From positions 124,001 through 188,000 of the forward strand of contig JAEUVX010000015.1 in NCBI GenBank assembly GCA_016786615.1: a stretch of 64,000 nt of DNA, in the 5' to 3' direction. The position numbers and the translations under genes were made by a program. The stretch's first letter is position 1, and every line of letters begins with the position of its first letter. This document shows, piece by piece, positions 27,959 through 64,000 of the stretch. Below the pieces are notes generated by a model. The model was not told the DNA's origin. It saw only the letters and a program-made list of their open reading frames with translations, and made no database searches. The DNA comes from Flavipsychrobacter sp. Lineage in GTDB: Bacteria; Bacteroidota; Bacteroidia; Chitinophagales; Chitinophagaceae.

Positions 27959-27971
27959 AGAATTATGAGTT

Positions 27972-39866: not shown

Positions 39867-39996
39867 CCCATTTTCTCTAATTCGGCATACTAGAGTAGTA
39901 GGCGGAATTATCCTTTTCAGGCAATGGAAGGAGTTTGACTATTCCGGCAATTTTTACCTACTTCCAGTACTTTCATTGTTCTCCTACGCTGAAAAC

Positions 39997-41241: not shown

Positions 41242-41253
41242 GAGTTGCATTCG

Positions 41254-41302
41254 GGGGGTCTGGGGGTTTACCCCCAACAAGACATTTCGCCCAGGCGAAA
41301 TG
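41254..41302. repeat. Two adjacent hairpins downstream of the ATPase gene
   Basis: GGGGGTTTACCCCC (41262-41275) is followed by CATTTCGCCCAGGCGAAATG (41283-41302, perfect palindrome, 9-bp arms). CAAGA and TCTTG further extend the second stem with a bulge. They may end transcription or act as a protein site such as an oriT. Confidence 0.7.
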
Positions 41303-41307
41303 CAATC

Positions 41308-41325
41308 TTGCAAGGCGGTATTTAT
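41308..41325 (+). repeat. Module-boundary repeat, copy 1
   Basis: TTGCAAGGCGGTATTTAT precedes the DUF4365 gene. A near copy TTGCAAAGCGTATTTAT at 43451-43467 precedes the large NTPase gene. Confidence 0.45.
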
Positions 41326-41445
41326 AATCAATCCCTATATTCATTTGAAGAGTAATACTTTCATCAGTACTTTTATTAATAATTGCATAAACCCTTAATG
41401 TACTTCGATACCCTTACATTTCCCAAATCATAAACAAAGTCATTC

Positions 41446-46500: not shown

Positions 46501-49500
46501 TATTCCCTTGGTACCTTTTAAGATTAAAAGTTATCTCTGGTAAGAATATAGACATTGTTGATGAGGCAAAACAATCAAGCCATGCTTCACAGAAAGCAAC
46601 CTCTTCTAGATATGGTGATTATGATACTTTGCCAGAGGAAATATCAAGTATTATTTGTTCAATTCTTGCAAATTTAAACGACTATTCTGAAGCCTTAATT
46701 TCTGCCTTTTATAACACATATTATGTCACTGCCGACCGAATATACTTACCTGATAGGTTAGATATCCTCCGCACGTCATATCGCCAGAAGCATCTTGATT
46801 TTCTAAAGCATCAGTTTGAATCGAAGGCATTTGAAATAATTTCTAAAAATAGAAGTGATCAAACAGAGTCAGTATCAGAAAGATATATAAAACTATCTAG
46901 AGCGGTTTCAAACGCTTCAAAAGAGGATGCAGTTATTTATTTTGACGAAGCGATCAAAATAGCTTCAAAATTTGGAGATGAAATTTCGGAGAGATGGTTA
47001 GCAATTATTGGATTAGCAAAAAAAGCCGCACAACATCAAGATGTTGGTGAACATCTTGCTTATCGCTTTATTCGTTGCGCAGAAGTAGTTGGGGAGAATG
47101 TTGAGGAGAAGCATTGGGCCAGAGAGGAAGCTATAGCAATATGTACGCGCCTATCCACTAATGCTGGAATTTCTGCTTTGAGTAGATGGAGAGAGAGGGA
47201 TATAGGATATTTCGATCAGTTACTTACATCACTAATATTTGAATTGCTAAGAACAAATAAAATCAACGCATCAACTGGTTGGTCGCTGACTCGACTTATA
47301 TCACGTCATGCACTTAATCCACTTGTTGACACATGCCTTGAAAAAGAGGCGAGTTTAGAAGTAAAAATGACAATTTTTAATGATGCCATAGAAATCTTAA
47401 GTAAAGAAGGATGTGATAAAAGCTATTGGTCAGAGCTACAAGAAATAGGAAGGAGCCATTCAGTTCAGAACTCTACTCTGGATTCGATTATTTCATATTA
47501 TGATTCTAATACTCAAAATAAAGAACCTGCTGTACAGCAGAAAGATAGTCCTGCTAGAAAGGATAAGGAAGAGTTATGGAATGCAGTTTTTGAAGGAATT
47601 GACCTAAGTACTCTTGAAGGATTAAAAAGGGCGAAACAAAATTATAAAGCGACCAAAGAACTTTCGGAATATGGTTACTACTATAACTTTTGGGTGGAGG
47701 CAGTGCATCGTGCTGCCGGTGATAGTTTATGGGCGCTAATAGACTCATTTTTATTGTTAGACGATGGTAGCGTCTGGGAAGTAAAACAATTTTTCAACTC
47801 ATTACCTAGCCACTTTAAAGATAAAATTAGCTTTAAGAACAGATGGCCGGAAATATTGCATAAAATTGGAAAACGTTATGCATTTGAAATTGCAAGCCCA
47901 TACTCGTTCCCATCAATTGCTAGTGAGTTAGCAATTACTGAGGATAGAATAGTATGTATTAAAGAAGGAATTTTTGAGCGACTTTCAGAAAATAGCGATT
48001 TTAATACTGCCACAAGTTTTTTTGAATTTGTAAATCTTGCCTCTGACTTATTAAATCCTACTGAAGCTGTTGAAGCTCTTGATTACTCTTTGCATAGGTT
48101 TGAATTACATGTTGAGGATGATTTTGGTGATGGAGTATGGAATACAGCGTTGGAAGTAAATTCTACAGTTGATAAAGCAATTGGTGGCCTGATATGGTCA
48201 GCATTGGCAACACCTAGCAGAGCAGTAAGGTGGAAAGCAGCACATGTAGTACGTCAGTTAGGGACATTTAATGTAACTGGAGTTATAGAAAGTCTGATAA
48301 CGTGGCTTGAAGATGACCAAGTTAAGGCATTTGGAATTAGCTCTTTCAAATTCTATAATCTACATGCAAGACTCTATCTATTAATATCCCTTGCTAGAAT
48401 TGCAAAAGACTCTCCCGCATTGTTGAAAAAGTACGGCGCTGTGTTTCCAAAATATGCCCTTGAAGACCATGTACTGATTCAAAAGTATGCTAAAGAGATT
48501 GTTTTAAGAGTTGAGAACGCGTTTCCAGGAACATTTGATGTGGAGGTATATCAAAAAGTTCTTCGAGCAAATACATACGACAAGAGGATTAAGAAAATCC
48601 CATTTGATAAGTCAACTAATTCCTATTGGCATAAGAATAATTTATTAAAACCAGTAACAGATAACTACCATTTTGGGTGGGATTTTGATAACTATTGGTT
48701 CAATCCATTAGGCAGAGTTTTCGGCGTAAGTGGCAAACAGGTAGAAGAACTAGCGGAGCAAGTAATTAGATTCGAATGGAATGTTGAAGGCCCAAAGACC
48801 TATAAGGAAGATGCGAGGCACTACCTCTGGAATAGATATAGTGGAGATCGGGAAACATGGCACGACCATTTTGACTATCCTAGAGCAGACGATTTGAGTT
48901 TTTACTATTCTTATCATTCTTTATTTGTGGCAGCAGCTAAATTATTAAGCACTATGCCAGTTGTTTGTGATCGATCAGATTTATTTGACACATGGGAGGA
49001 TTGGATTGACAGTCATATTGTTACCAGAAGTGACGGCCTTTGGTTATCAGACATGCGTGACCCTGTGCCATTAATTAGACCCTCCTGGGTTAACAAAAAG
49101 ACTGATGATAATTGGCGAAAGCAAATAAAGAAAAGTGACTTTATTGATAACTTAATTTTAAAAAGAAGTGGAGAATCATGGATCGCCGTTTCCGGAGGCT
49201 GGAGTGAAGTAAATGACCATAGAAAGGAAACATATAGTGTTTCAACAGCATTAGTTGGCTCTAAAGCATCCAATGCTTTACTACAGGCACTCATGTCCTA
49301 TTCGGATCCATATGACTATAAACTTCCTGACTATGAGGAAAGAGACAAGGAGATATCTTTCAAACCATTTGAACTGAAGGGGTGGATTATAGATTCATCC
49401 ATTTCAAAAGGTATTGACCAATTTGATCCATACGGAAATGAACTAGGATATCCACCCGACGCGATTGGAGAGAAATATCTTAAGAAGCTCAACTTATTAG

Positions 49501-49820
49501 CAAATTCAAGTGGTAAGACTTGGAGTATAGATAAAACAAACGAAATTGTAATAAAAAGTGAGACATGGAAGAGCTTTAGGTATACTAAAGATGATGAATT
49601 TGACCAGTCTGGCAGTAGAACGGTTGCAAATTTAGAATTCCTGAAACGAGTGTGTAAACAACTTAATTGCGATATAATGTTTGATTTTGGAATAAACAGA
49701 GACTTTACGTATCGGTATCAGGGTGATAAATATGAACATTCAAAGCCCCAACATTTAATATTTATACTATCTGCAGATGGAACATTCAGAGATTCAAAAA
49801 GAAGCTACAAGATTAGGTAA
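43557..49820 (+). CDS. Avs-like STAND NTPase with Cap4-like nuclease domain
   Basis: The 2087-residue protein begins with a DUF4297/Cap4-type nuclease domain, in which Glu40, Asp54 and Gln72-x-Lys74 (YFQLKHST) form a PD-(D/E)xK-like site. A STAND NTPase follows with Walker A IHAAGGVGKSVFCKQF near residue 280 and Walker B KLFILIDAADNAE near 372. The remaining 1500 residues are helical repeats expected to act as a sensor. This order matches the antiviral STAND (Avs) proteins that recognise phage proteins such as terminase or portal and then assemble and cut DNA. The subfamily cannot be decided by eye. It is coupled to a downstream gene by a 44-base overlap. Confidence 0.78.
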   Translation: MPNDLVGYSRAGDTFHYRWAARRCLRMVNPNSPLKCIVVEGSNEISKEGEYVIDVSEYYQDKLGNRSVEYFQLKHSTLHANEPFTLSDFDKTLLGFAKRFKQHLDKNDESYNLPCNFSIVTNRAISSDLKGNFLAISKGESATNRFKETLEKYTKLNPTELSAFCRLIQFEDSEGDYRVQKEELRFEIAQLLSGTVDNTQLTTLIALVEEKILPHSNHTIIQEDVLRQFEVTSINDLYPAPSTWEPPEKIIVREQHNSLNDKIVNSNDPIIIHAAGGVGKSVFCKQFIEASGENSVAIAYDCFGAGTYRNRSKTRHRHRTALVQIVNELATKGICDPIIPLPRDSDEDLMKTFISRINNSVDAIKKSAPDGKLFILIDAADNAEMAAHEFNQNCFAHELLREVLPSDCKLIFLCRTERIGLLSPLSNVLQLELYPFSERETLQNLLEHYPTASKADGNEFHRLSAGNPRVQANALDGKYSTVDELLQSLGPSETTVEDQIRHQLNLAVNKIIDSVPIGFNEHVTSICTGLACLPPNISIDILAQAASVDRGTVVSFITDIGRSLWMSDSSVQFRDEPTETWFRETFSGNKSQYAKYIENLESLADKSTYVAETLPQLYLQAEQYEKLITIALSDNLLPTNNPIDARNVRVYRLQFAFKAALKLKKYKDAIFLAMCAGEEMAGNLRQMGLLQANVDMLVKLQSKERIQEFAYRKALGGSWEGSENVYSASLLSSIAEYKGEARGYLRAGRNWLRIYFSEAKKNTDLLHKEKLEDRDLVEFAFAYLNLDGVKESLEFLNSITPKKYMFSVMRDLATRVIDSGDISTICEFLRLCDSDPYFNVAIVSELMKVGFKPDGTYLKKTLRQLCNPKSRIDCNTDYHYNDDITPAILSFLEACLRNKLSGNQILSVLTHYVPTRASDLINSYHERLPREIFVRGLAIRAIVTDKHELDFESILPESLLKEKKDYKKENEKKKYYEVINGLFPWYLLRLKVISGKNIDIVDEAKQSSHASQKATSSRYGDYDTLPEEISSIICSILANLNDYSEALISAFYNTYYVTADRIYLPDRLDILRTSYRQKHLDFLKHQFESKAFEIISKNRSDQTESVSERYIKLSRAVSNASKEDAVIYFDEAIKIASKFGDEISERWLAIIGLAKKAAQHQDVGEHLAYRFIRCAEVVGENVEEKHWAREEAIAICTRLSTNAGISALSRWRERDIGYFDQLLTSLIFELLRTNKINASTGWSLTRLISRHALNPLVDTCLEKEASLEVKMTIFNDAIEILSKEGCDKSYWSELQEIGRSHSVQNSTLDSIISYYDSNTQNKEPAVQQKDSPARKDKEELWNAVFEGIDLSTLEGLKRAKQNYKATKELSEYGYYYNFWVEAVHRAAGDSLWALIDSFLLLDDGSVWEVKQFFNSLPSHFKDKISFKNRWPEILHKIGKRYAFEIASPYSFPSIASELAITEDRIVCIKEGIFERLSENSDFNTATSFFEFVNLASDLLNPTEAVEALDYSLHRFELHVEDDFGDGVWNTALEVNSTVDKAIGGLIWSALATPSRAVRWKAAHVVRQLGTFNVTGVIESLITWLEDDQVKAFGISSFKFYNLHARLYLLISLARIAKDSPALLKKYGAVFPKYALEDHVLIQKYAKEIVLRVENAFPGTFDVEVYQKVLRANTYDKRIKKIPFDKSTNSYWHKNNLLKPVTDNYHFGWDFDNYWFNPLGRVFGVSGKQVEELAEQVIRFEWNVEGPKTYKEDARHYLWNRYSGDRETWHDHFDYPRADDLSFYYSYHSLFVAAAKLLSTMPVVCDRSDLFDTWEDWIDSHIVTRSDGLWLSDMRDPVPLIRPSWVNKKTDDNWRKQIKKSDFIDNLILKRSGESWIAVSGGWSEVNDHRKETYSVSTALVGSKASNALLQALMSYSDPYDYKLPDYEERDKEISFKPFELKGWIIDSSISKGIDQFDPYGNELGYPPDAIGEKYLKKLNLLANSSGKTWSIDKTNEIVIKSETWKSFRYTKDDEFDQSGSRTVANLEFLKRVCKQLNCDIMFDFGINRDFTYRYQGDKYEHSKPQHLIFILSADGTFRDSKRSYKIR

Positions 49821-50481
49821 GCTCTTCATAAAAGAACTTGGACTTGAGCAAACAAGCGATACTATTTCACGCTGGATGGCATTTTATCTTGCGGAAAAAA
49901 TCAGCTTATGCGAAAAGCTACAGGGTCTTGAAAAAGCAAAGGCTGAAAAAGAGTGCTTTGAAATAATCTTGAATCTTTGGAAGAGAAGATGGACGTTACC
50001 ATCAAATAAACGACCCTTAGAAGAATTTGCTCCAATTCTCAATTTTTTGCAGGCACTTAACCCTGAGAAAGAAAATCCACATTATTATCCCCAAATTCCG
50101 ATTAAGATTAAGAAAAGTAAAAAGGACACTAAAGACCCCGTACAGACATGGCTTAATGTAGCGGCTAATATTGATAGGACTTGTAGAATATTTTTGTATG
50201 ATGTTTTTCAGTTTGCCGCTGAATGTGCAAGTGATAAAGACACAAAACAATGGCTAAAATCCTCACTGCATTTGCCTAACCGTCAAGATTTCGAAACAAT
50301 TCGAATTGTCTTAAAGTATCAGGACGAAGAGGAGGACGAAGAAAAACAGAATGAAGAATTAAGAAAACACAACGAGGAAAATATTAAAAAGAAGATTGAC
50401 ACTTTAGAACAATTTGCGAAATTCAATTTGTTTCTGCTTGAAAAATATAAAGTTGAATTGAGCTCTTTCTCTGAGAAGTAG
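49777..50481 (+). CDS. Small helical protein coupled to the Avs-like gene
   Basis: The 234-residue protein is charged and helical with a coiled-coil region at about 180-225 (EEKQNEELRKHNEENIKKKI). It has no membrane segment and no recognised domain. Its start overlaps the last 44 bases of the large NTPase gene, so both are translated together, and it is the last gene before attR. A role as partner or regulator of the Avs-like protein is likely from position only. Confidence 0.65.
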   Translation: MEHSEIQKEATRLGKLFIKELGLEQTSDTISRWMAFYLAEKISLCEKLQGLEKAKAEKECFEIILNLWKRRWTLPSNKRPLEEFAPILNFLQALNPEKENPHYYPQIPIKIKKSKKDTKDPVQTWLNVAANIDRTCRIFLYDVFQFAAECASDKDTKQWLKSSLHLPNRQDFETIRIVLKYQDEEEDEEKQNEELRKHNEENIKKKIDTLEQFAKFNLFLLEKYKVELSSFSEK

Positions 50482-53496: not shown

Positions 53497-54006
53497 ATGG
53501 AAAACAAAAACAATGATGTGTCTAATGCTGCATCTTATTATTATATCCTTTGGGGTAGTATAGTAGTGCTTTATTCTATTGCTCAATTCTTTGCGCTGAA
53601 ATATAGCATTGGCTTTTTAAAAAACTCTTCGTTACTATTTCTGATAGGGGGCATATTATCCTACTTTCATGCCAAACGAGACACCGCACCACACTCTACT
53701 ATAGATAAAGCTTACTTGAAAGTATGGATTGCAATAAGTATTGGTCTGGTGCTTGTTAATACAATCGGCCCATTCTTATCTATCAAATATATTATTCCTC
53801 TGACACTTGCATTATATACAACAGGGGGGCTAATAACAGGCACTACCTCAAAATCCCTCCTATCTATTATTGGTGCAATTATCTGTGGCATCTGTACTAT
53901 TGGTAGCTTCTATACAGATATGCCAATGCAGTTTCTTTTGCAGGCATTAGCTGTGGCATCTGTACATATTATACCAGGGGTCTTTCTGCTACAGAAAAAG
54001 AATTAA
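53497..54006 (+). CDS. Multi-span membrane protein, unknown
   Basis: The 169-residue protein has about five transmembrane segments, for example YYYILWGSIVVLYSIAQFF, VWIAISIGLVLVNTIGPFL and LLSIIGAIICGICTIGSFY. No motif is recognised. It lies 234 bp before the histidine kinase gene on the same strand and may be part of the same regulatory region. Confidence 0.6.
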   Translation: MENKNNDVSNAASYYYILWGSIVVLYSIAQFFALKYSIGFLKNSSLLFLIGGILSYFHAKRDTAPHSTIDKAYLKVWIAISIGLVLVNTIGPFLSIKYIIPLTLALYTTGGLITGTTSKSLLSIIGAIICGICTIGSFYTDMPMQFLLQALAVASVHIIPGVFLLQKKN

Positions 54007-54240
54007 GCCGGATAGCCAACATCAGGTTTAAGTACATTAACTGCAAGGTTTACTGAGCCGGAAGCTACATGTTGCTGACGCAACGATAAGTATCATGCTC
54101 GTACTAAAAAAATCCAACATTACACCTCCGTTATCAGCATTTATTCAATCAATTAAATGCTAATAATACGGATGCAATGATTAGCCTTATCTATCCCTCA
54201 AAATTTATTTTGCAAGCATCGCAAACTAAACACAAAACCA

Positions 54241-55026
54241 ATGGAAAACAATATATTTTACCTTCTCACTACTATATCCGTTTCAACCATACTGATAGTT
54301 TTTGCAATTTCAACCATCAAAAGATATGCCCAGTCAAAAAATCTGAAGAAGAATGAAAGATATATCCCCATGCATAACGCTTTAATAAACTTCAACGAAC
54401 AGGAGTATTTAAAATCAAGCATTTCGAGAGAATTGCATGACAATGTAGGCCAATTACTAAGTCTTACGCAAATGAACTTGCACTACCTTAGCAAAGCAAC
54501 AAACGGGGACTTCAGATACAATAAAATAACAAGGGATACAATATCAATACTGGACCAGATTTATGACAGTATTCAGCATATCAGCCACAAGCTGAACGCA
54601 GATTTTGTGAATAAATCAGGATTAATAAGTATGCTGAAGCAAGAAGCAACTTCATTGAAAATAGCCAAAAACATTTCAGTAGTACTAAATATTGATGGAA
54701 ATGAATGTAGATTGAAAGAAGATGTCGAGCTTTCAATATTCAGAATTGCACAAGAGTCTCTGCGTAATATCATTAAACATGCACAAGCAACAGAAGTAAT
54801 TATTTCCATGAACTATTCAGCAGATTATTTGCACATGGCAATTAAAGACAATGGAATTGGCTTTGAGATGGATAGGATAACAACTGATAATACCAGCGGT
54901 ATAGGGCTTGCCAGTATGCATCATCGTGCCGCGTCAATCTGCGCTACATTGAATATTATTTCATCTCAAGATGGAACTACAATACAAATTGAGTTAGCGT
55001 CAGTGTATGCCTACAAAGCCAGTTAA
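54241..55026 (+). CDS. Sensor histidine kinase, NarL/LiaS (HisKA_3) type
   Basis: The 261-residue kinase has one N-terminal transmembrane helix (residues 5-26), then the HisKA_3 box SISRELHDNVGQLLSLTQMN with phospho-acceptor His66, and an HATPase domain with ESLRNIIKHAQATEVIISM (N box), DNGIGFE and GIGLASMHHR. It has no periplasmic sensor domain, so it may read a membrane partner. Its likely partner is the LuxR-type regulator at 62688; the two flank the peptide cluster. Confidence 0.88.
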   Translation: MENNIFYLLTTISVSTILIVFAISTIKRYAQSKNLKKNERYIPMHNALINFNEQEYLKSSISRELHDNVGQLLSLTQMNLHYLSKATNGDFRYNKITRDTISILDQIYDSIQHISHKLNADFVNKSGLISMLKQEATSLKIAKNISVVLNIDGNECRLKEDVELSIFRIAQESLRNIIKHAQATEVIISMNYSADYLHMAIKDNGIGFEMDRITTDNTSGIGLASMHHRAASICATLNIISSQDGTTIQIELASVYAYKAS

Positions 55027-55045
55027 GCATACCAAGCTTAATAAA

Positions 55046-56839
55046 TTACTTTTTTGCAATAAGTAACCAGGTCTGCATCAGTCCTTTACTCTTAATTTGC
55101 ATGAGCTCTCTGGCTGTAAAGACAAATAGTTTATCTGTAGCAGTTTTAAAATTGCTGGTGCAATGTATTTCTCCAGCTGCACCGGAAGACTCCATCCTGC
55201 TTGCAGTATTAACAGTATCTCCCCAAATATCATACACAAATTTTCGTTTACCCAATACCCCTCCGATTGCAGGACCACAATCTAAGCCTACGCGAAAATC
55301 TATGTGATCTCCGAAGTTTTCCCTAATTGACGTAATCATACTTTTAATTTCCAATGCCATATTTGCAGCCGCTTCTGTATGGTTTTGCATTGCAATAGGA
55401 GCACCGGCAACAGCCATATAACAATCGCCAATTGTCTTGATTTTTTCCATTTTGTACTTTCCTGCTATATCATCAAAAATTGTAAAGATTTCATTCAGCA
55501 TATTTACAACTTTTTTCGGGTCGGTTTCAGAAGTATACTTAGTAAAACCTACCATATCAACAAACAAAACAGAAACCTCAGGCAGATAATCTGCGATGGG
55601 GTGTTCTTTATTTTTCAACCTTGCAGCAATTACAGTAGGCAGGATATTCAACAACAGTCGCTCAGACTTGCGTCTTTCTTTAAACAGTACTACCAGTACC
55701 AGCAAAACCAATATACCAGCAATGCTTATCAGCAATATTTGACTATTCCTTTTTTCAAGCTTCAGTTCATTAATCTGTATTTGTTTATCTTTAATATATA
55801 TATCCCTTTCCGTTTCCAGATATGCAATCTTCTGAAGGTTTTTTCTGGAATATATCGAGTCCTTATACTCGTTATATCGTTTATAATACTTCAGTGCATT
55901 ATTTGCATTTCCTATCAGACTTTCAGCTTCAGACAAATCTTTATAGAAATTCTGGGCTATATCTATTGCCCCTAACTTCTGAGATAGTTTTATTGATTCT
56001 TCAAGATATTGTATAGCAGTCTGTAGTGCTTGCGTTCTACCAACTGGCAGCTTAAATTTTGTAACGGAATCTTTCAATACATACAAATACAATACACCCA
56101 TATTCCCTTTGCTTATCGCCAGTCCGTACAAATTATTCAACTGTTCATTTATGCTTAGTGCCTGCTTTGTATTATCAAATGCTTCGCTATAGTCTGCATT
56201 AACTGTATTTACCATTGCAATGTTCTGAATGTTCTGAGCCATTCCATATCTGTCTTGCTGTTTCTTGCACTGATCTAATGCTAGCTTGTATGCAGATAGT
56301 GCCTCACTGTATTTAGCCAGAAAAAAATACACGTTGCCCATATTGCCATATACCTGTGCAATGCCATTCGTGTCATTTATGGATTTATACAGATGCAATG
56401 CCTTCTCGCAATACGAAAGTGCTTTAGGGTCATTATTGTATGAGTATACCAACCCCAGCTTGTTATATACTGAAGCTATTTGCTCTTTATCCTCCAGCTT
56501 TTCAAATATTGCCAATGCTGCTAAAAGGTTTTCAATAGCTTTTGCATATTCAGACAAGGCAATATAGTTGATAGCAATATGCTTGTGTGCATTCGCAACT
56601 CCGTTTTCGTACGATACTTTTCTCGCTAAATCGAGCGCTTCAAAACCATACCTCAAACCAGAATCGGGCGACACACGATAATATGCGAATGACAAATCGC
56701 ATAGCGCCCTAACCCTATCCTGAGCAGTTCCTGCATTCTCCACATTATTATTCAGAGAGTCGACATTAACATCTACTATCTGCTGACAATAACATATATG
56801 GAAGCAAAAAACTAAAACAATAGCGAGAAAATGTTTCAT
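55046..56839 (-). CDS. TPR-domain adenylate cyclase (class III)
   Basis: The 597-residue protein from the ATG at 56839 has a signal peptide, about six to seven TPR units (for example NVYFFLAKYSEALSAYKLAL), a coiled coil and a transmembrane helix (ILLISIAGILVLLVLVVLF), and a C-terminal class III cyclase domain from about residue 420. The domain has SVLFVDMVGFTKYTS (first metal Asp), EKIKTIGDCYM (substrate Lys), YDIWGDTVNTASRMES (adenine-selecting Asp and catalytic Asn/Arg), so ATP to cAMP is the expected reaction. The TPR part should be periplasmic. It points away from the peptide cluster. Confidence 0.9.
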   Translation of the reverse strand: MKHFLAIVLVFCFHICYCQQIVDVNVDSLNNNVENAGTAQDRVRALCDLSFAYYRVSPDSGLRYGFEALDLARKVSYENGVANAHKHIAINYIALSEYAKAIENLLAALAIFEKLEDKEQIASVYNKLGLVYSYNNDPKALSYCEKALHLYKSINDTNGIAQVYGNMGNVYFFLAKYSEALSAYKLALDQCKKQQDRYGMAQNIQNIAMVNTVNADYSEAFDNTKQALSINEQLNNLYGLAISKGNMGVLYLYVLKDSVTKFKLPVGRTQALQTAIQYLEESIKLSQKLGAIDIAQNFYKDLSEAESLIGNANNALKYYKRYNEYKDSIYSRKNLQKIAYLETERDIYIKDKQIQINELKLEKRNSQILLISIAGILVLLVLVVLFKERRKSERLLLNILPTVIAARLKNKEHPIADYLPEVSVLFVDMVGFTKYTSETDPKKVVNMLNEIFTIFDDIAGKYKMEKIKTIGDCYMAVAGAPIAMQNHTEAAANMALEIKSMITSIRENFGDHIDFRVGLDCGPAIGGVLGKRKFVYDIWGDTVNTASRMESSGAAGEIHCTSNFKTATDKLFVFTARELMQIKSKGLMQTWLLIAKK

Positions 56840-57122
56840 GCAAGAGTATCGTTGGTATGCGTTTGTAGCACAATATAGAAAATCCTTACAGTAAATATTT
56901 ATAAACATTGGTATTCTATCTGGCAAATACGGTATGGCAAAGGTGTTGTTTCATACGTTTTACGATTGTTTAAAGTACACAATCCTACGTATATATAATC
57001 CATGAAACATGGCGATACTAACCCCTCCCAGACCTGTATCTGAATGTAGTTTTGTCATATCAACAATGAGAAATTCAGTTCAGTAAAAGTCTTATCAACT
57101 ACAATTTAAAAACCAAAAACAC

Positions 57123-57860
57123 ATGGCTAATTACACAATTTTAGACAACGCAAGTGCTCAGCAAATCACTGCTAATCAATGTACACCAAATCCAAACTAC
57201 CAAGCACTGAAATCAAAATTTGAGGCTGAAGGAAAAGAATTCTTCGGAGACAGAACTATAGCGCTTGTTGGTGTTGATCCAGAAAACCCTGCAAACTCTT
57301 ATACTATGGTTATCAACCCTAGCTTTGTAGGTTTTAACTATGACCAAACTCCAAGTCACGAGGCAGCAAGTATCGTTAGCTATTTTTCTGAAGGTCGTAG
57401 TGTGCACCTGGCAGCTGTTGCTGTTATCAGCCACAATCCGCTGCAAATAGCAAGCATCACACTGCAAGAAATAGGCAAGACTGGTAATATCGTTAGCACA
57501 CAGATTGACAGGGTGACTTTGATAAACCAAACTCCAGAACAAATAGGACAAAGCCTTTCTGTAGAACACCTGAACACTCCAAATGCGAGCGAACTGAATG
57601 CAAAAACAGGATTTGATGATATGGGTTCTATAGCTCAGTATGCATTGACTACATTGCTGAATGACAATTATGCATATGGCCTGTACCCTACAGGTGGTGT
57701 AGGTGCACTGACACAAGATGCAGTAGTAGCATCTAAGTTCTCTCAAGCTGTTAGTATGAGGGCTGGCTTACTGGATTTGGGCTGTGAAATCACAGTTTGT
57801 ACTTCTACAAGCTCTAACGCTTGCTCTAGCTGTTCTTCTACTATCACTATCGAGCTGTAA
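57123..57860 (+). CDS. Azol(in)e-type RiPP precursor peptide with a 220-residue leader
   Basis: The 245-residue protein has no signal peptide. Residues 1-220 look like a folded, beta-rich leader (SYTMVINPSFVGFNYDQTPS, VHLAAVAVISHNPLQIASIT). The last 25 residues, after GLLDLG, have four Cys, seven Ser and five Thr (CEITVCTSTSSNACSSCSST then ITIEL), the composition of a heterocycle-forming core. The E1-like, YcaO and SagB genes follow, which makes it the substrate. Only one other Cys (residue 20) lies in the leader. A strong terminator after it allows higher expression than the enzymes. No known precursor family is recognised; cleavage near residue 220 is a guess. Confidence 0.75.
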   Translation: MANYTILDNASAQQITANQCTPNPNYQALKSKFEAEGKEFFGDRTIALVGVDPENPANSYTMVINPSFVGFNYDQTPSHEAASIVSYFSEGRSVHLAAVAVISHNPLQIASITLQEIGKTGNIVSTQIDRVTLINQTPEQIGQSLSVEHLNTPNASELNAKTGFDDMGSIAQYALTTLLNDNYAYGLYPTGGVGALTQDAVVASKFSQAVSMRAGLLDLGCEITVCTSTSSNACSSCSSTITIEL

Positions 57861-57912
57861 TAAAAAACAACCCTCTTGTTGACATTATTTAATTAAAAAA
57901 CTTTTGCTGAAC

Positions 57913-57938
57913 AAAGGCGCCCTGTAAGGCGCCTTTTT
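57913..57938 (+). terminator. Strong terminator between precursor and enzyme genes
   Basis: AAAGGCGCC...GGCGCCTTT forms a perfect 9-bp stem with a six-base loop and TTTTT. It ends the precursor transcript, with possible read-through into the enzyme genes. Confidence 0.95.
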
Positions 57939-58023
57939 CTATTTAATAATATTCCTGAATATTCCAATAGTGATATCACTATTTATAACCCCACAAACCC
58001 TCTTGATTGTACAATTATACTGC

Positions 58024-58134
58024 ATGCAAAGTATAGAGGTTTCTACCGGAATAGATATGCATCCAGAAATAGTTTTGCTCATCATATCAGTTATGAAATC
58101 ATTCTTTAAAACCAAAAAAACAATCGTTACATGA
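58024..58134 (+). CDS. Possible 36-residue leader peptide 1
   Basis: The frame MQSIEVSTGIDMHPEIVLLI continues for 36 residues and ends TGA at 58132-58134. Its stop overlaps the ATG of the next small frame (ATGA). It has no family match and may be chance, but it forms a coupled chain that ends at the cyclodehydratase gene. Confidence 0.3.
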   Translation: MQSIEVSTGIDMHPEIVLLIISVMKSFFKTKKTIVT

Positions 58135-58232
58135 AAGACAAAATCAGAGCAGGTAATCATTATCTGATTACCACATTATTTTATTTCTTAAATCAACACA
58201 TTTCTAATCAGAAAAACACAAACACTATATGA
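58131..58232 (+). CDS. Possible 33-residue leader peptide 2
   Basis: The frame MKDKIRAGNHYLITTLFYFL runs 33 residues. Its ATG overlaps the preceding stop and its TGA overlaps the ATG of the cyclodehydratase gene at 58229, each by four bases. Translational coupling is plausible; a product is not proven. Confidence 0.35.
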   Translation: MKDKIRAGNHYLITTLFYFLNQHISNQKNTNTI

Positions 58233-59275
58233 GACTGGTGTATTACAAACCTCAGATAAATGCAAACAGCAAACTGGCAGAATATCAGGAAAACAAAGAA
58301 AGCCTGCATGCTATTTACCTAAATCTGGTAGATGGTGAACGTACTGCTGATGACATTGCCAAAATGCTATTAATAAACGGACACATGATAGGAGATATCA
58401 TCACGGTAATGAATGAACTGCAGAAGTGTGGAGTAATCTCGGAAGCTCCTACCTCCGACTTGGGAATATTTGATGCTCAGGAGCTTGACAATCTGGAGAA
58501 TCAACTGAATGCGCTATCAATGTTCAACTTTGATAAAAACGGTATGTTTATGCCATATTCACCAAGTTCATTAAGCCATCAGAAACGTATTAAAGAAGCC
58601 AAAATAATGGTTGTAGGTAATGGGGAAAATGCAAGGAGGTTAATCACAGAACTAACAAGACTGGGTTTGGGCGAGATACAGTATTATATATACGGTACAG
58701 AAAATGTGGTTGCGGATGAAGACAGCACCATTAAAGCCTTAGACACCGTAAGCCACGACTATACAGATATCTACATTCACAAAACTTTTAATCAGGAACT
58801 GGATACAGATATTATTTCAAGAGGCAATACTGATATCGTTGTTTATATAGAAGATGATTTTTCAGAAAAAACCGCCGTACAGATTAACGACATCTGTAGA
58901 CAAAACCAAAAAGACTTTCTTCCGTTTCAAATATCTTTTCCTAAAGTTTACGTAGGCCCATTCTACATCTACAAACAAACTGCATGCTACAAGTGCTATC
59001 AGATAAGGAAAGATGCTGCTAAGATACCTTATACTCCGGCCTCTCCGAAGGCAGCTAATGCACAGCTAAATATTGTTTTTGGCGTAGACCTGCTATGCCT
59101 TGAAATCGTAAAATACTACTCATATATCACAGACATGACCACAGTAGATAATGTGTGGACATTTGATATAGTTACAGGCAAAACAAGCTATCAGCCAGTA
59201 TTTAAAATACCTCGTTGCCCTATATGTGGCGTCAGCAAAATAAAACCAACAAAGAAACTATGGGAAAACATATAA
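58229..59275 (+). CDS. E1-like cyclodehydratase partner (TOMM C protein)
   Basis: The 348-residue protein has an N-terminal winged-helix region like the RiPP recognition element (ESLHAIYLNLVDGERTADDI and MIGDIITVMNELQKCGVISE), an E1/ThiF-like Rossmann core (KEAKIMVVGNGENARRLITE) and two Cys pairs, CYKC near residue 252 and CPIC near 330, that fit the zinc tetrathiolate of cyclodehydratase C proteins. It should bind the precursor leader and present it to the YcaO enzyme. It overlaps the YcaO gene by 16 bases. The ATP-binding residues of E1 enzymes are not obvious, as is normal here. Confidence 0.8.
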   Translation: MRLVYYKPQINANSKLAEYQENKESLHAIYLNLVDGERTADDIAKMLLINGHMIGDIITVMNELQKCGVISEAPTSDLGIFDAQELDNLENQLNALSMFNFDKNGMFMPYSPSSLSHQKRIKEAKIMVVGNGENARRLITELTRLGLGEIQYYIYGTENVVADEDSTIKALDTVSHDYTDIYIHKTFNQELDTDIISRGNTDIVVYIEDDFSEKTAVQINDICRQNQKDFLPFQISFPKVYVGPFYIYKQTACYKCYQIRKDAAKIPYTPASPKAANAQLNIVFGVDLLCLEIVKYYSYITDMTTVDNVWTFDIVTGKTSYQPVFKIPRCPICGVSKIKPTKKLWENI

Positions 59276-60597
59276 ACAATATACAGTTTGGAAGTAAATC
59301 ATTGCTCGACCTATATGACGCGAGAACCGGCATAGTAAACTATATAGCAGAAATAAACATCAACCTATCGGATCCGGAAGTATTTGTTACTGCTGCCACA
59401 GCTTGCGATATTAAAAAAATAGGTGTGCCGGTTGACTATGGTGTAAATGGCTCAGGTGCAGGCCTTACCTGGGAAGATGCATATTATGCAGCCATAGGCG
59501 AAACAATAGAACGCTACTCTTTAGCAATCATACATCAGGAAGACCTTGTCTTTGCAACAGCAAATGAAATGAGGGCAAAAAACCTGCCTATTGTTGAGCC
59601 CAAAGAGTGGAGTCTTTTTGCCCCTTCTCAAAACATTGAACCCTATGCCCGTTTCACTGATGACACCCCTATTACGTGGGTGCTGGCCGATAGCATGACT
59701 GATTGCAAGAGCAAGTATGTACCTGCATGTTTCGTGTATTTGCCATACTATTCTCATTTTAAAGAAGAAGGAGAGTGTGTTTTGAACGCATCTTTATCTA
59801 CCGGGGCTTCTTGTGCAAAATCTACTGCAGAGGCTACACTCAAGGGGCTTTGCGAGCTCATAGAGCGTGATGCTTTTATGATAATGTGGAAAAACAGCCT
59901 CTCATGTCCTAAAATTGAAATAGACAATAATTCAAGTATATACGAAGTATACAATACCAGGTTTAAACGTCCAGGGTTACAATATGATATTTACTACACT
60001 ACTATGGACCTCGGAATCCATTCTTTCTTCGGCGTATTAACTGACTACAGGGGAGAATATGTTTCCAGAGTGGTTGGTGGTGCAGCCCATCCAGACCCTG
60101 AAAAAGCCATATTGAAAACATTGGTCGAATTGGTGCAAGGGCATCTGTGGAAGATATATAAAGGGCACATTGATTTTCCGCTTACCGAAGATTTTTCGAA
60201 CGTCAAATCCTTTACAGACAGGATGGAACTGTACGCGTATAATGATATGACAGAAGCTTTTAAGTTTCTGCCGGATGAGGCAAGCATAACCCTCTCTCAA
60301 CTAAAAGAAAGCAACAGATACAAGGCGCTTAATACAGAAGAAATATTATCGAAAGTAACAGGCGAATTCCGCCAGAAAGGTTATGATGTACTTGGGGTAA
60401 ACCTTACATCTCCGGAGGCGCATGCATGCGGCGTTAATATCGTTAAAGTGCTGACACCATCTCTGGAGCTGATGGATGGCGACTATACATACCAGTATCT
60501 TGGCGGCATCAGGTGGAAAGAAGTGCCTTTTAAAGCAGGGCTGAAGAAAACTTCAGAACCAATAGTACTAAACCCATATCCTCATCCATACCCATAA
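59260..60597 (+). CDS. YcaO cyclodehydratase (TOMM D protein)
   Basis: The 445-residue protein has the YcaO ATP-binding motifs GAGLTWEDAYYAAIGETIER and LKGLCELIERDAFMIMW, the SGASCAKST-like loop (STGASCAKSTAEATL), the later GGAAHPDPEKAILKTLVELV and the C-terminal Pro-rich end NPYPHPYP that TOMM YcaO enzymes need for activity. It uses ATP to turn Cys, Ser and Thr residues of the core into azolines. The start at 59260 (MGKHINNIQFG) is preferred to an upstream ATG inside the C-protein gene. It is translationally linked to that gene. Confidence 0.93.
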   Translation: MGKHINNIQFGSKSLLDLYDARTGIVNYIAEININLSDPEVFVTAATACDIKKIGVPVDYGVNGSGAGLTWEDAYYAAIGETIERYSLAIIHQEDLVFATANEMRAKNLPIVEPKEWSLFAPSQNIEPYARFTDDTPITWVLADSMTDCKSKYVPACFVYLPYYSHFKEEGECVLNASLSTGASCAKSTAEATLKGLCELIERDAFMIMWKNSLSCPKIEIDNNSSIYEVYNTRFKRPGLQYDIYYTTMDLGIHSFFGVLTDYRGEYVSRVVGGAAHPDPEKAILKTLVELVQGHLWKIYKGHIDFPLTEDFSNVKSFTDRMELYAYNDMTEAFKFLPDEASITLSQLKESNRYKALNTEEILSKVTGEFRQKGYDVLGVNLTSPEAHACGVNIVKVLTPSLELMDGDYTYQYLGGIRWKEVPFKAGLKKTSEPIVLNPYPHPYP

Positions 60598-60645
60598 TCA
60601 TACCGTGTATTCAAAACAATATTTTTCATCTTATAAAAAATAAAT

Positions 60646-61452
60646 ATGAACGATTTACTGAACGATGAATATTTTTCATTGAGTGAGCTCTATCATGAAA
60701 AGTCGAAAATGAGAATGGTTGACTACACTTTCTACAAATGGATTAACCATGTAAATACATCAACCCAACTCAGAGAAATAATCTCGAAGCCCAACTATAG
60801 TTTTCATGGTTATCCGTCTGTTGCACTGAAGCAGGATATTCTTGTGAACAAAGAAAAAGAAACGGTTTATGATATGTTTCTTAAAAGGCAATCAAGAAGA
60901 GAGTTTTCTGGCAAACCTTTGTCTCTTGAAGTCCTGTCAAATATATTGTTTGCCGGCGATGGCATTAACAGAAAAGACACACAAAGTGATGGTGTTGCAT
61001 GGAATATGAGAACAGCACCATCGCCCGGTGGGCTATACCCTATTGATACGTATTGCATCATTCAGAATGTTGAATCTGTTGAAGCTGGCTTGTATATCTA
61101 CTCACCGGTAGACAATTGTTTGTATCAAATATTTGCTGCAAGCAAAAAAGAGCTGAATGAAAGACTATACAATGCTATGAGGCCCATGCGCAAATCGGTA
61201 GATAATGCTGCAGCAACAGTATTGTTGGTTTCTAATATGATGCGAGCTAAGTTTAAGTACAAAGAGCGTGCATACAGATTTGCTCTACTGGAAACCGGAC
61301 ACATAGCTCAAAACATTTCTTTAGCGGTAGAAATTGAAAATGCAGGTGCTGTTTGTGTAGGTGGATATATGGATGATGAGCTGCATGCTATTTTAAATCT
61401 TGACGGGCTAGAAAATATAGTGCAATATTGCATTCTGATTGGTACCATTTAA
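60646..61452 (+). CDS. SagB-type FMN azoline dehydrogenase (TOMM B protein)
   Basis: The 268-residue nitroreductase-fold protein has FLKRQSRREFSGKPLSLEVL, the loop NMRTAPSPGGLYPIDTYCII, and the C-terminal GHIAQNISLAVEIENAGAVC and GLENIVQYCILIGT, which match SagB-type oxidases. With FMN it oxidises azolines to aromatic azoles. Start and length fit the short members of the family. It lies 48 bp after the YcaO gene in the same operon. Confidence 0.9.
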   Translation: MNDLLNDEYFSLSELYHEKSKMRMVDYTFYKWINHVNTSTQLREIISKPNYSFHGYPSVALKQDILVNKEKETVYDMFLKRQSRREFSGKPLSLEVLSNILFAGDGINRKDTQSDGVAWNMRTAPSPGGLYPIDTYCIIQNVESVEAGLYIYSPVDNCLYQIFAASKKELNERLYNAMRPMRKSVDNAAATVLLVSNMMRAKFKYKERAYRFALLETGHIAQNISLAVEIENAGAVCVGGYMDDELHAILNLDGLENIVQYCILIGTI

Positions 61453-61638
61453 ACCCAATTCTTTATAGTTAAATTAAAAACAGTGATATAAAATGTTTTT
61501 ATATGTGAACTACTGTAATATTAACTATATTTTAGCGGAAGTGGCACAAAACTGGGAGGGTATGTAGAATGAGTTTAAAATACATTGTATCGTCCAAACA
61601 CGTATTAAAGATGGAAAAAGTATAAATATTCAACCGCA

Positions 61639-62625
61639 ATGGGACGTTTATCGAGTTATCTATTGGAGTATTCTAATGTAGATCATGAAAACATATCATT
61701 AAAAGACTCTATCAAATTTTGTTATTTAGACGTTGCTCCCAAAAAAAACGCAGTATTAGAACTAAATTCATTTGCTATTCTTAATGAGTCTGTACAGGGC
61801 CTTATTGATAACTTCCTGAATGGCGTATTAAGTACAAACGATATAATATCTGAATTAAGAGAAGATATTGACATCATATTTCATTTAATCTTTGAAGAAA
61901 GATTAAGATTGAATAAGATATTAAACATTGAATCCGGCGACACAGAAATGATAGCTGGCATAAAAATCAATCTTGAAAATATCATCAATTCGTATGATAG
62001 ATGGAAAGATATTCTGGATAATGACAATCTTGAAGAAATTGTAAGAACGTCTGGAGAGATTTTTGAGTGTTACAATATCTTCCTGAACAAATCAATGGAT
62101 TTTCTTAACAAGAAGTATACATCGTATGCACTTGTAAGCCTGTCATTCCTGGTATTAGCATTACTGAGTAATATCCTGAAACAAGGCATTAGTTTTATTA
62201 GCAATAAAGCTCTCAGGTTTATCAGCTATTATAACCGAGCCACGAATTATGCGATTATAGACTCTTTTGCAAATATTTTAGTAATGCTTGAAAATGATAA
62301 TGAAGAATTATTCCGCTCTTATACATCAAAAGACATCAGGTGGCCCGATGGCAAGTGCCTGATAATTGAAGGTGATATAAAGAAGGGCTATATTTTCAAG
62401 GTTTACAAAGAAAATGTAAACACCGGAAATGAATATGCTGGTATGGATAGTGAATTTACGCCACCCTATTCAGGGCTTGATGACATCATGTCTAAGTATG
62501 AGGGGAAAAGGCTGGTATATTTTGAAAACACTTTCAAAATATCATTTATAAAGCTGGCAATTCATAATTGCAACGTATATGCAGGTATTATTAACTCGTA
62601 TATAGCAAAAATTGGCTCATCGTAG
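61639..62625 (+). CDS. Unknown protein of the azole-peptide cluster
   Basis: The 328-residue protein has a helical N-terminal part (VQGLIDNFLNGVLSTNDIIS), a hydrophobic segment near residues 166-186 (SYALVSLSFLVLALLSNILK) and a C-terminal part with IRWPDGKCLIIEGDIKKGYI. I recognise no family. It lies 186 bp after the dehydrogenase and 62 bp before the regulator. It could act in immunity, maturation or export, but nothing in the sequence settles this. The N-terminal start MGRLSSYLLEYS seems natural. Confidence 0.6.
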   Translation: MGRLSSYLLEYSNVDHENISLKDSIKFCYLDVAPKKNAVLELNSFAILNESVQGLIDNFLNGVLSTNDIISELREDIDIIFHLIFEERLRLNKILNIESGDTEMIAGIKINLENIINSYDRWKDILDNDNLEEIVRTSGEIFECYNIFLNKSMDFLNKKYTSYALVSLSFLVLALLSNILKQGISFISNKALRFISYYNRATNYAIIDSFANILVMLENDNEELFRSYTSKDIRWPDGKCLIIEGDIKKGYIFKVYKENVNTGNEYAGMDSEFTPPYSGLDDIMSKYEGKRLVYFENTFKISFIKLAIHNCNVYAGIINSYIAKIGSS

Positions 62626-62687
62626 GGTTCATATTCTCCATTTTGAATTGTACTTTCAGACTTTTATCACCTCAACCACTTATTATT

Positions 62688-63350
62688 ATGACAACAATAA
62701 AACTGTGTATTGCTGATGACCATACATTATACAGAACAGGCATCATAAATATGATGGCAGACTTTAAAGATTGTGAAATAGTTTTTGAAGCAGAAGATGG
62801 CAAAACAATTATTGAAAAAATCGGCTCATCAGACAAGACTATAGACATCTGCATTTTAGACATCAACATGCCTGGCCTGAATGGTTATCAAACACTGAAA
62901 ACAATCAAGCAAAAATGGCCTGACATCAAAGTATTGATACTTTCAGCCTACAACAACATTCATGCTATTATTAAAACGCTTCGCTGTGGCACAAACGGGT
63001 ATATGCTGAAGAACTGCAAACCTTCAGAACTGCATGAAGCTATATTAAAAGTTTATCACAACGGGTACTACTTCCCTGATTTTATATCAGGCAGAATGAT
63101 ATACTTATTAAACAACAACAGTGCTGATATACCTGTACTTACAGATGAAGAGTTGGATTTTCTGGCCTTATGCGCTACAGACCTCACTTATAAACAAATA
63201 GCAGACATTATGTGCGTAAGCCCCAGAACAATAGATAAATACAGCAAAGTATTGTTTGACAAACTAAATGTTCGTACGCGTACTGCATTAGCTACATTTG
63301 CGCTCAATATTGGGCTGGATTCCAGCATGACAAGTGCTTATAAAGTATAA
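62688..63350 (+). CDS. NarL/FixJ-type response regulator (LuxR HTH)
   Basis: The 220-residue protein from the ATG at 62688 has a receiver domain with acidic pocket Asp10/Asp11, phosphoacceptor Asp58 (ILDINMPGLNG), Ser86 and Lys108 (MLKN), and a LuxR-type HTH (LTYKQIADIMCVSPRTIDKY). It should be phosphorylated by a HisKA_3 kinase and bind promoters. The kinase gene at 54241-55026 is the only candidate in the window. An upstream ATG at 62643 adds 15 residues with no family match. Confidence 0.92.
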   Translation: MTTIKLCIADDHTLYRTGIINMMADFKDCEIVFEAEDGKTIIEKIGSSDKTIDICILDINMPGLNGYQTLKTIKQKWPDIKVLILSAYNNIHAIIKTLRCGTNGYMLKNCKPSELHEAILKVYHNGYYFPDFISGRMIYLLNNNSADIPVLTDEELDFLALCATDLTYKQIADIMCVSPRTIDKYSKVLFDKLNVRTRTALATFALNIGLDSSMTSAYKV

Positions 63351-63380
63351 GATACTTCAAATAAAAAACAAAAAATCAAA

Positions 63381-63410
63381 CAAATGCCTGGCATAAAAGT
63401 CAGGCATTTG
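63381..63410. terminator. Terminator after the response regulator gene
   Basis: A perfect 10-bp stem CAAATGCCTG...CAGGCATTTG with a ten-base loop lies 30 bases after the stop codon. TTGTTG follows on the forward strand; A-rich sequence precedes it. Confidence 0.85.
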
Positions 63411-63533
63411 TTGTTACTGAAATGCATACGCTGTGACCTCTATTACTAGATGATGTAATTACATAAACATCGTAGCGATATCACATAAACATTCAATGCT
63501 TCGCAAGGTACTTTTACATAAAAAGACAATACC

Positions 63534-63824
63534 ATGAATTGCAACACAACAATCTTTTTAGCCTTAATTGGCATACTGGGCATAGCATTGCAGGTTGGAT
63601 TTAAATTATATGCGTTTAATCGTGGCCGCGCAAATAAGCACAACCTCAAAACAGAATTGATTATTATCATTCTATCGCTTATTACAGTCATCGCTACTTC
63701 GCTGGTACCATATGCTATTACCCCATTACAATTATCGGGCAAGTGGCTTGCCGTCGGGACATTTACTATTGGTTACATGACGTACAGCTTGCTCAGTAAG
63801 CTCATATCGGCCGATATAAAATAG
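63534..63824 (+). CDS. Small membrane protein, unknown
   Basis: The 96-residue protein has three hydrophobic segments: TTIFLALIGILGIALQVGF, IIIILSLITVIATSLVPYA and WLAVGTFTIGYMTYSLLSK. I see no motif. It and the next partial gene may form an operon after the regulator terminator. Confidence 0.6.
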   Translation: MNCNTTIFLALIGILGIALQVGFKLYAFNRGRANKHNLKTELIIIILSLITVIATSLVPYAITPLQLSGKWLAVGTFTIGYMTYSLLSKLISADIK

Positions 63825-63876
63825 TACCCTTAGTACACAGATAAACTCATAACAAACTAAAACCATAGCAAATAAG

Positions 63877-64000
63877 ATGGGAAATATTGATACAATACAG
63901 GTTATGTCATACTACTTAAGAAATAGTGAGTTATATACTTTGGCATTCCTTATAGGGATGGGTATTATAGGGGTCATATTGCACAACCTTGTTAAGTTAG
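63877..64000 (+). CDS. Membrane protein, partial at window end
   Basis: The frame starts MGNIDTIQVMSYYLRNSELY and runs into a membrane segment (LAFLIGMGIIGVILHNLV) before the window ends after 41 codons. Its family cannot be read from this part. It begins 52 bp after the preceding small membrane protein gene. Confidence 0.5.
   Translation, partial: MGNIDTIQVMSYYLRNSELYTLAFLIGMGIIGVILHNLVKL

What the first reader, a model, noticed from the sequence alone, without database searches (positions are those of the whole stretch)
57123..62625. Azole-peptide (TOMM/LAP) RiPP cluster in a Bacteroidota genome
A precursor with a Cys/Ser/Thr-rich C-terminus is followed by an E1-like C protein, a YcaO protein with the terminal PYPHPYP motif and a SagB-type dehydrogenase, in that order on one strand. 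These three enzymes make azolines and azoles from Cys, Ser and Thr. No LanB-type dehydratase, radical SAM enzyme, cycloaddition enzyme or exporter is visible, so a linear azole peptide is the best prediction. Such clusters are rarely described from Bacteroidota to my knowledge, and the product is not predictable from a known family.
Basis: partly seen in the sequence, partly recalled or inferred. Interest (0 to 1): 0.88.

Follow-up and report, generated by a model that had tools for sequence, protein, structure and literature searches.

The report
Azole-peptide cluster with protein-sized precursor
A Bacteroidota genome carries genes predicted to turn the Cys/Ser/Thr-rich tail of a 245-residue protein into azole rings, and the unusual part is that the carrier is protein-sized, of no known family, and comes without a recognised protease or exporter.

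Summary
Window 57123-61452 encodes a 245-aa protein with a Cys/Ser/Thr-rich tail, an E1-like C protein, a SagD-type YcaO and a SagB-type dehydrogenase, in that order; the last two pass their curated cut-offs. It adds regulators and membrane proteins but no recognised exporter or protease. The precursor profile hit 2 of 394 sampled family genomes, both with the cluster. In the 15-residue tail block 12 residues are identical and all 3 changes are Cys/Ser/Thr swaps. Best reading: a C-D-B azole pathway acting on the tail of a ~220-residue carrier without a Pfam or NCBIfam match, NHLP included. Proteusin leaders are called atypically long at 80-90 residues. Ring formation, tail release and function are untested, and the structure model is too poor to name a fold. 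New variant of a known kind.

The parts
53497..54006 (+). 169-aa protein with four membrane-like stretches; first gene of the conserved block
   Evidence: 52% identical to the collinear gene in UBA6221; no Pfam hit at E<=0.1; hydropathy. The UBA6221 copy hits Acyl_transf_3 at 20.1 bits, under the cut-off of 31.
54241..55026 (+). histidine kinase (HisKA_3 + HATPase_c), one N-terminal membrane-like stretch
   Evidence: Pfam over cut-off; 46% identical collinear gene
55046..56926 (-). TPR + class III adenylate/guanylate cyclase, divergent from the precursor gene (start codon uncertain)
   Evidence: PF00211 181 bits, TPR hits; 66% identical collinear gene
57123..57860 (+). 245-aa precursor protein: ~220-residue carrier/leader plus Cys/Ser/Thr-rich tail
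   Evidence: no family in NCBIfam, and in Pfam only one row at E 0.17; 59% identical collinear gene of the same length
57798..57842 (+). conserved core block (residues 226-240): the same 13 of 15 positions are Cys/Ser/Thr in both genomes
   Evidence: codon table: 12 of 15 residues identical, the 3 changes T/C, S/T and C/S
57913..57936 (+). terminator-like hairpin between precursor and C gene; likely attenuator
   Evidence: 9-pair stem + T tail; its 21-nt core is identical in UBA6221 at the same place and occurs once in the window's genome
57968..57981 (.). 14-bp perfect palindrome TAGTGATATCACTA; possible operator, weak evidence
   Evidence: one exact match in the window, but 4 matches at up to 3 mismatches against 4.24 by chance; 11 of 14 at the matching place in UBA6221
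58229..59275 (+). C protein: E1/ThiF-like, with two CxxC pairs (253/256, 330/333)
   Evidence: best solved relatives are MccB chains (E 1.8e-4)
59260..60597 (+). D protein: SagD-type YcaO cyclodehydratase, overlaps C by 16 bases
   Evidence: TIGR03604 over cut-off; TruD 2e-16 and LynD 1.2e-15
60646..61452 (+). B protein: SagB-type FMN dehydrogenase (azoline to azole)
   Evidence: TIGR03605 over cut-off; best solved match 3eo7 (putative nitroreductase, 7e-31), McbC 4.2e-9; only TIGR03605 match at E<=0.001 in the genome
61639..62625 (+). 328-aa protein of unknown function, one membrane-like stretch (162-180), mostly helical in a poor model
   Evidence: 0 families in Pfam, NCBIfam and PHROGs at the limits; profile hits only the two cluster genomes among 195; hydropathy; model pLDDT 51
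62688..63350 (+). response regulator, receiver + LuxR-type HTH (ORF opens at TTG 62643; ATG 62688 fits the relative)
   Evidence: Pfam over cut-off; 77% identical collinear gene; start codon read
63534..63824 (+). 96-aa protein with two membrane-like stretches
   Evidence: 52% identical collinear gene; DUF2304 only under cut-off
63877..64000 (+). start of a 119-aa paralogue with two membrane-like stretches; runs past the window to 64236; last gene of the conserved block
   Evidence: 72% identical collinear gene; 0 Pfam families

Best explanation
The locus is a C-D-B azol(in)e biosynthesis cluster whose substrate is the tail of a protein-sized carrier. The C protein binds the carrier and presents it to the YcaO D protein, which uses ATP to cyclise Cys, Ser and Thr of the tail block CTSTSSNACSSCSST to azolines; the B flavoenzyme oxidises some of them to azoles. 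The ~220-residue N-terminal part acts as a conserved, probably folded, recognition domain, as the shorter NHLP leaders do, but matches no leader family in the libraries searched. The precursor is made in excess over the enzymes through a terminator that sits between its gene and the C gene, and a kinase and a LuxR-type regulator encoded in the block control it. Shown by sequence: the genes, their order, conserved synteny, co-occurrence, conserved tail and hairpin. Inferred: ring formation, recognition by C, attenuation, regulation. Unknown: whether and how the tail is released and leaves the cell, and what it does.
For: D and B exceed curated cut-offs for azole-peptide enzymes and match TruD/LynD and McbC; the C protein is ThiF-like with two CxxC pairs, invariant in the relative. 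Eleven genes are collinear in a second genus. Precursor profile: 2 of 394 family genomes, both with the cluster; the 9 other genomes of the genus listed there have no match. Close D relatives: only the same second genome (70%) besides the own among 294. Tail: the same 13 of 15 heterocyclisable positions in both genomes, 12 of 15 identical, changes T/C, S/T, C/S; pN 0.124 in the block against 0.258 in residues 1-214. Hairpin identical over 21 nt while silent sites of the leader are saturated (pS 0.777), and present once in the own genome.
Against: Only two members are known, so conservation rests on one pair, and the tail block has only 15 codons. TIGR03882 is 0.7 bits under its cut-off for C. 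No protease or exporter was recognised in the block, no cleavage motif was seen by eye, and no C39 peptidase was found in the genome (genome 91% complete). The carrier's fold is unknown (pLDDT 45). There is no evidence of expression or of any product.
Confidence: 0.7

Rival explanations
1. The rings stay on the protein: the 245-aa product is a protein with an azole tail (a modified intracellular or surface protein), not a leader-core precursor, and nothing is cut off or secreted as a small peptide.
For: No recognised protease or exporter among the eleven conserved genes, whereas two compared C-D-B clusters carry ABC exporters, one with an insulinase-type protease. The carrier is as long as an ordinary protein and about 59% identical between the genera. 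YcaO enzymes are known to act on whole proteins such as McrA (PMC5589413, title and start of abstract seen in the listing).
Against: Proteases and exporters are often encoded elsewhere, and the genome is a 91% complete draft. Proteusin leaders, also long, are removed (recalled). The unknown 328-aa and 169-aa proteins were not excluded as protease or transporter.
Confidence: 0.2
2. The 245-aa ORF is an ordinary protein, and the true substrate of C-D-B is another, unannotated small ORF.
For: Compared clusters have short candidate precursors upstream of C: 35, 67 and 102 aa, and less surely 81 aa. There is a 368-base gap between precursor and C.
Against: The ORFs of 50 aa or more lying in the gap are 73 aa (-) and 54 aa (+), neither ending in a Cys/Ser/Thr-rich stretch; ORFs under 50 aa there were not listed. 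Much of the gap aligns poorly with the relative apart from the hairpin. The tail of the 245-aa protein is what C-D-B needs and changes only within Cys/Ser/Thr in its block.
Confidence: 0.06
3. A thiopeptide or other macrocyclic hybrid: the azole tail is further dehydrated and cyclised.
For: The tail resembles thiopeptide cores in composition (inference).
Against: No lantibiotic-dehydratase family hit in any protein of the block (Pfam, all eleven; NCBIfam, seven of eleven). The genome-wide search for PF04738 was empty, but its control rang nowhere, so it is inconclusive.
Confidence: 0.04

Closest known systems
[quoted passage not shown] names recalled or from PMC4603692)
   Same: C-D-B enzyme set, YcaO with proline-rich end, Cys/Ser/Thr-rich C-terminal substrate
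   Different: Precursor of 245 aa with a carrier matching no leader family searched; no recognised ABC exporter or protease gene in the conserved block
NHLP (proteusin) and Nif11 TOMM precursors, e.g. MprE/MprC (PMC12455567)
   Same: Long leader engaging a YcaO cyclodehydratase; in MprE7 as folded protein-protein contact (for ours this is inferred)
   Different: NHLP leaders are 81 aa (MprE) or often 80-90 aa or longer (PMC10858898); ours is about 220 aa, without NHLP/Nif11 profile hit or hhalign match to five NHLP-type precursors
Lactiplantibacillus plantarum plasmid C-D-B cluster (NZ_CP104086)
   Same: Best D match of the plasmid search, 33.8% over the whole length; same C-D-B order
   Different: 35-aa candidate precursor ending CCLFCCCC, insulinase-type protease and ABC exporter
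Hymenobacter sp. GOD-10R plasmid cluster (NZ_CP141187)
   Same: Bacteroidota, C-D-B order, histidine kinase + regulator nearby
   Different: ABC exporter, TonB receptor and lantibiotic dehydratase beside it; D only 25.5% identical

Membership tests
TOMM / linear azol(in)e-containing peptide cluster | SagD-type YcaO cyclodehydratase | tested here: met
   TIGR03604 245.9 bits, cut-off 219.25
TOMM / linear azol(in)e-containing peptide cluster | E1/ThiF-like C protein next to it | tested here: met
   PF00899 over cut-off; TIGR03882 36.2 bits, just under 36.9, and TIGR03603 far under its cut-off; overlaps D by 16 bases
TOMM / linear azol(in)e-containing peptide cluster | SagB-type dehydrogenase (needed for azoles, not azolines) | tested here: met
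   TIGR03605 110.3 bits, cut-off 78.4
TOMM / linear azol(in)e-containing peptide cluster | Precursor with Cys/Ser/Thr-rich C-terminal core | tested here: met
   0 of 100000 shuffles reach it; pattern kept in the relative
TOMM / linear azol(in)e-containing peptide cluster | Azol(in)e rings in the product and release of the core from the leader | not testable with these tools
   needs mass spectrometry; no protease recognised in the block
NHLP (proteusin) / Nif11 precursor | Leader matches NHLP or Nif11 profiles | tested here: not met
   0 NCBIfam families at E<=10 for the whole precursor and its first 81 residues, both genomes; the same library finds TIGR03793 in two L032 precursors, though under its cut-off
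Thiopeptide | LanB-like dehydratase (and cycloaddition enzyme) in the cluster | tested here: not met
   no such hit in the block: Pfam for all eleven proteins, NCBIfam for seven; genome-wide PF04738 search inconclusive, control rang nowhere

The most novel reading that the evidence does not exclude
The product is a protein, not a peptide: a 245-residue cellular protein that receives a conserved array of up to 13 azol(in)es at its C-terminal end and keeps it, with kinase, cyclase and membrane proteins of the block using it in signalling or at the cell surface.
Probability: 0.17. Interest if true: 0.8.

Novelty: new variant of a known kind. Interest (0 to 1): 0.5.

Why it matters
If right, it extends azole-forming YcaO pathways to a carrier about two and a half times longer than the leaders now called atypically long, of a new family, and gives a small four-gene system for testing how a large carrier presents its tail to a cyclodehydratase. 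Search settings built for short precursors would miss it; Cox 2015 says that long NHLP and Nif11 precursors escaped its parameters (PMC4603692, passage seen). The lack of a recognised protease and exporter makes the question of whether the rings stay on the protein directly testable.

Tried and rejected
NHLP or Nif11 leader: the first residues look alike by eye, but there is no profile hit, and hhalign against five NHLP-type precursors gave probability 0.3%. Two-row profiles are insensitive: C against five PqqD-type ORFs gave nothing either. PqqD/RRE domain in the 328-aa protein: guessed by eye, not supported (hhalign; N-terminal part helical in a poor model, pLDDT 51). Solved-sequence search with the precursor profile: one row at E 1.2; with the 328-aa profile: six rows at E 0.41 or worse.

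Weak precursor-profile hit in G1267 (17.9 bits): the frame there reads by eye as an anti-sigma-type protein beside a sigma-factor-like ORF; taken as chance, no profile was run on it. Viral contigs: 98 stretches matched a pattern, none confirmed as a relative. Plasmids: no precursor relative at E<=0.01. PHROGs: three rows for the window precursor, best E 0.058. D tree of 17 rows: the window sits firmly only with UBA6221 (100/100); L. plantarum as sister has support 80/52. GC content gives no sign of recent import: 36.9% for 53497-64000, 38.4% for 1-53000.

Literature: eight searches listed no paper whose title or start of abstract describes such a cluster; only listed rows were seen, and most subscription journals are not held. 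Papers opened: PMC12455567 (parts 1 and 2 of 3), PMC4603692 (passages and section 27), PMC10352776, PMC10763512 and PMC10858898 (passages).
Full report
What is there. The 245-aa precursor (57123-57860) has no hit in Pfam or NCBIfam; repeated at E<=10 the only row is a Pfam hit at E 0.17. The C protein (58229-59275) is ThiF-like, PF00899 31.2 bits; TIGR03882 reaches 36.2 bits against a cut-off of 36.9. The YcaO protein passes TIGR03604 (245.9 against 219.25) and the dehydrogenase passes TIGR03605 (110.3 against 78.4). Among solved chains D matches TruD and LynD best, B a putative nitroreductase best and McbC among others, C only MccB. C and D overlap by 16 bases. C carries two CxxC pairs, invariant in the relative.

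A second copy fixes the boundaries. A genome-contig scan with D gave two relatives: one at 70% identity in 'Bacteroidetes bacterium UBA6221' (L002) and one at 28% in a Nitrospinota bin. L002 corresponds to G050, another genus of the same family (same position on the contig). I compared the window from base 40000 plus the next 16.9 kb of its contig with 47 kb of the G050 contig. Eleven genes match in the same order and orientation, from 53497 to 64236 in window coordinates: a membrane protein, histidine kinase, divergent TPR-cyclase, precursor, C, D, B, the 328-aa protein, response regulator and two small paralogous membrane proteins. Outside the block two neighbouring ORFs at 66616-69356 match distantly (36-39% identity) a pair that lies about 15 kb past the block in G050, against 2.4 kb here; nothing else passed E<=1e-6. 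Window bases 1-39999 were not compared. By Pfam, run on all eleven proteins, none is an exporter or protease, and five (precursor, 328-aa, 169-aa, 96-aa and 119-aa proteins) match no family over its cut-off. The window ends inside the block's last gene.

Distribution. Precursor profile: 2 of 394 sampled family genomes, the own and G050; the 9 other genomes of the genus listed have no match. Single-sequence search: 1 of 298 in the order, the own, so G050 was evidently not drawn. Class: 2 of 395, the own genome and one hit taken as chance. 328-aa protein: 2 of 195 family genomes, the same two. D at E<=1e-10: 4 of 294 family genomes, of which only the own and G050 are close; the other two are 27-28%. 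These samples overlap and are not independent. TIGR03604 in the phylum: 14 of 395 genomes at E<=1e-20, 10 over the cut-off, the own included. So YcaO clusters of this kind are uncommon but not absent in Bacteroidota, and this cluster is rare in what was sampled.

The tail. Up to 15 of 20 residues within the last 25 are Cys/Ser/Thr in the window protein and 13 of 20 in the relative; 0 of 100000 shuffles of each protein reach this. Over residues 226-240 (window CTSTSSNACSSCSST, relative CTSCSSNACTSSSST) 12 of 15 residues are identical and each of the three changes swaps one heterocyclisable residue for another. Non-synonymous difference is 0.124 in this block and 0.258 in residues 1-214; silent difference is 0.445 and 0.777. 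Over residues 221-245 as a whole pN is 0.252, no lower than in the leader, so the constraint is on the block and not on the whole end; and with 15 codons the contrast is only suggestive. It does not look like the hypervariable cores described for cyanobactins and NHLPs (PMC4603692, passages); it looks like one product kept.

The carrier. Proteusin and Nif11 leaders are called atypically long at often 80-90 residues or longer, against about 40 in lasso- and lanthipeptides (PMC10858898, passage). The MprE leaders are 81 residues; that of MprE7 is folded, and its first helix and an L(X)4L motif are needed for modification by the YcaO protein (PMC12455567, parts 1 and 2 of 3 read). Here about 220 residues precede the tail. 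There is no NHLP profile hit, while the same library finds NHLP in two L032 precursors, under its cut-off. AlphaFold with two sequences gave mean pLDDT 45: two N-terminal helices, strands between 38 and 131, a helix at 167-184 and a tail with little structure. No fold can be named from it (see Tried and rejected). In the compared C-D-B clusters the likely precursors upstream of C are 35 aa (L. plantarum), 67 aa (Nitrospinota) and 102 aa (L023). In Hymenobacter an annotated 81-aa hypothetical lies about 3.3 kb upstream of C and next to a lantibiotic dehydratase, so its role is doubtful. Assigning these as precursors is my reading.

Expression signals. A 9-pair hairpin with a T tail lies between precursor and C (57913-57936; the scan found 7 terminator-like sites against 4.3 in shuffles, so the scan alone proves little). 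Its 21-base core, loop included, is identical at the same place in UBA6221, and occurs once in the own genome and in 0 of 19 other relatives searched (G050 was not among them). A terminator after the precursor gene, with read-through to the enzymes, is a usual way to make precursor in excess (general knowledge). A 14-bp palindrome follows at 57968, 11 of 14 kept in the relative; at that stringency the window count is at chance, so it is only a candidate operator.

How it most likely works is given under best explanation. Shown: genes, order, synteny, co-occurrence, tail pattern, hairpin. Inferred from family knowledge: ATP-dependent cyclisation by D, presentation by C, oxidation by B. Unknown: fate of the carrier, export, activity. 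The lack of a recognised protease or exporter in the block contrasts with the L. plantarum and Hymenobacter plasmid clusters. No C39 peptidase was found in the own genome, with the control ringing in 8 of 14 genomes, so the peptidase-transporter route common in Bacteroidales clusters (PMC10352776, passages) is not at hand unless it lies in the missing part of the draft.

Verdict. New variant of a known kind.

Noticed in passing
window 43557-50481 (+): Avs3-type defence pair: 2087-aa Avs3a (PADLOC 1567 bits over nearly the full length) and Avs3b (E 6.4e-45), about 3 kb upstream of the conserved azole block.
   Followed up: partly
window 39976-43425 (+): HerA/TrwB/mad8-like ATPase and a DUF4365 protein beside the Avs3 genes; with them the region reads as a defence island.
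   Followed up: no
window 26459-31202 (+): Y-family polymerase-like ORF (PF00817) followed by a DnaE-type polymerase III alpha, as in SOS mutagenesis cassettes (the cassette name is recalled).
   Followed up: no
L030 4758-11123 (-), genome G722: Five ORFs of 220-270 aa with a PqqD-like domain (TIGR04353 about 25 bits, under cut-off, in the two scanned) joined to a Ser/Cys-rich tail, on either side of a fused C-D YcaO: precursors that seem to carry their own recognition domain.
   Followed up: partly
L032 2730-5695 (+), genome G614: Five tandem NHLP-type precursors (TIGR03793 E 4e-12 and 6e-8 in the two scanned, under cut-off) with Cys/Ser/Thr tails before a fused C-D YcaO, in the same phylum.
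   Followed up: partly
L036, window coordinates 71548-73284 (-): Three tandem ~180-aa ORFs that look like tail-collar proteins by eye, downstream of the block.
   Followed up: no
window 63473-63486 (+): Imperfect copy (11 of 14) of the palindrome at 57968 in front of the 96-aa membrane protein gene; the number of such matches in the window is at chance.
   Followed up: no
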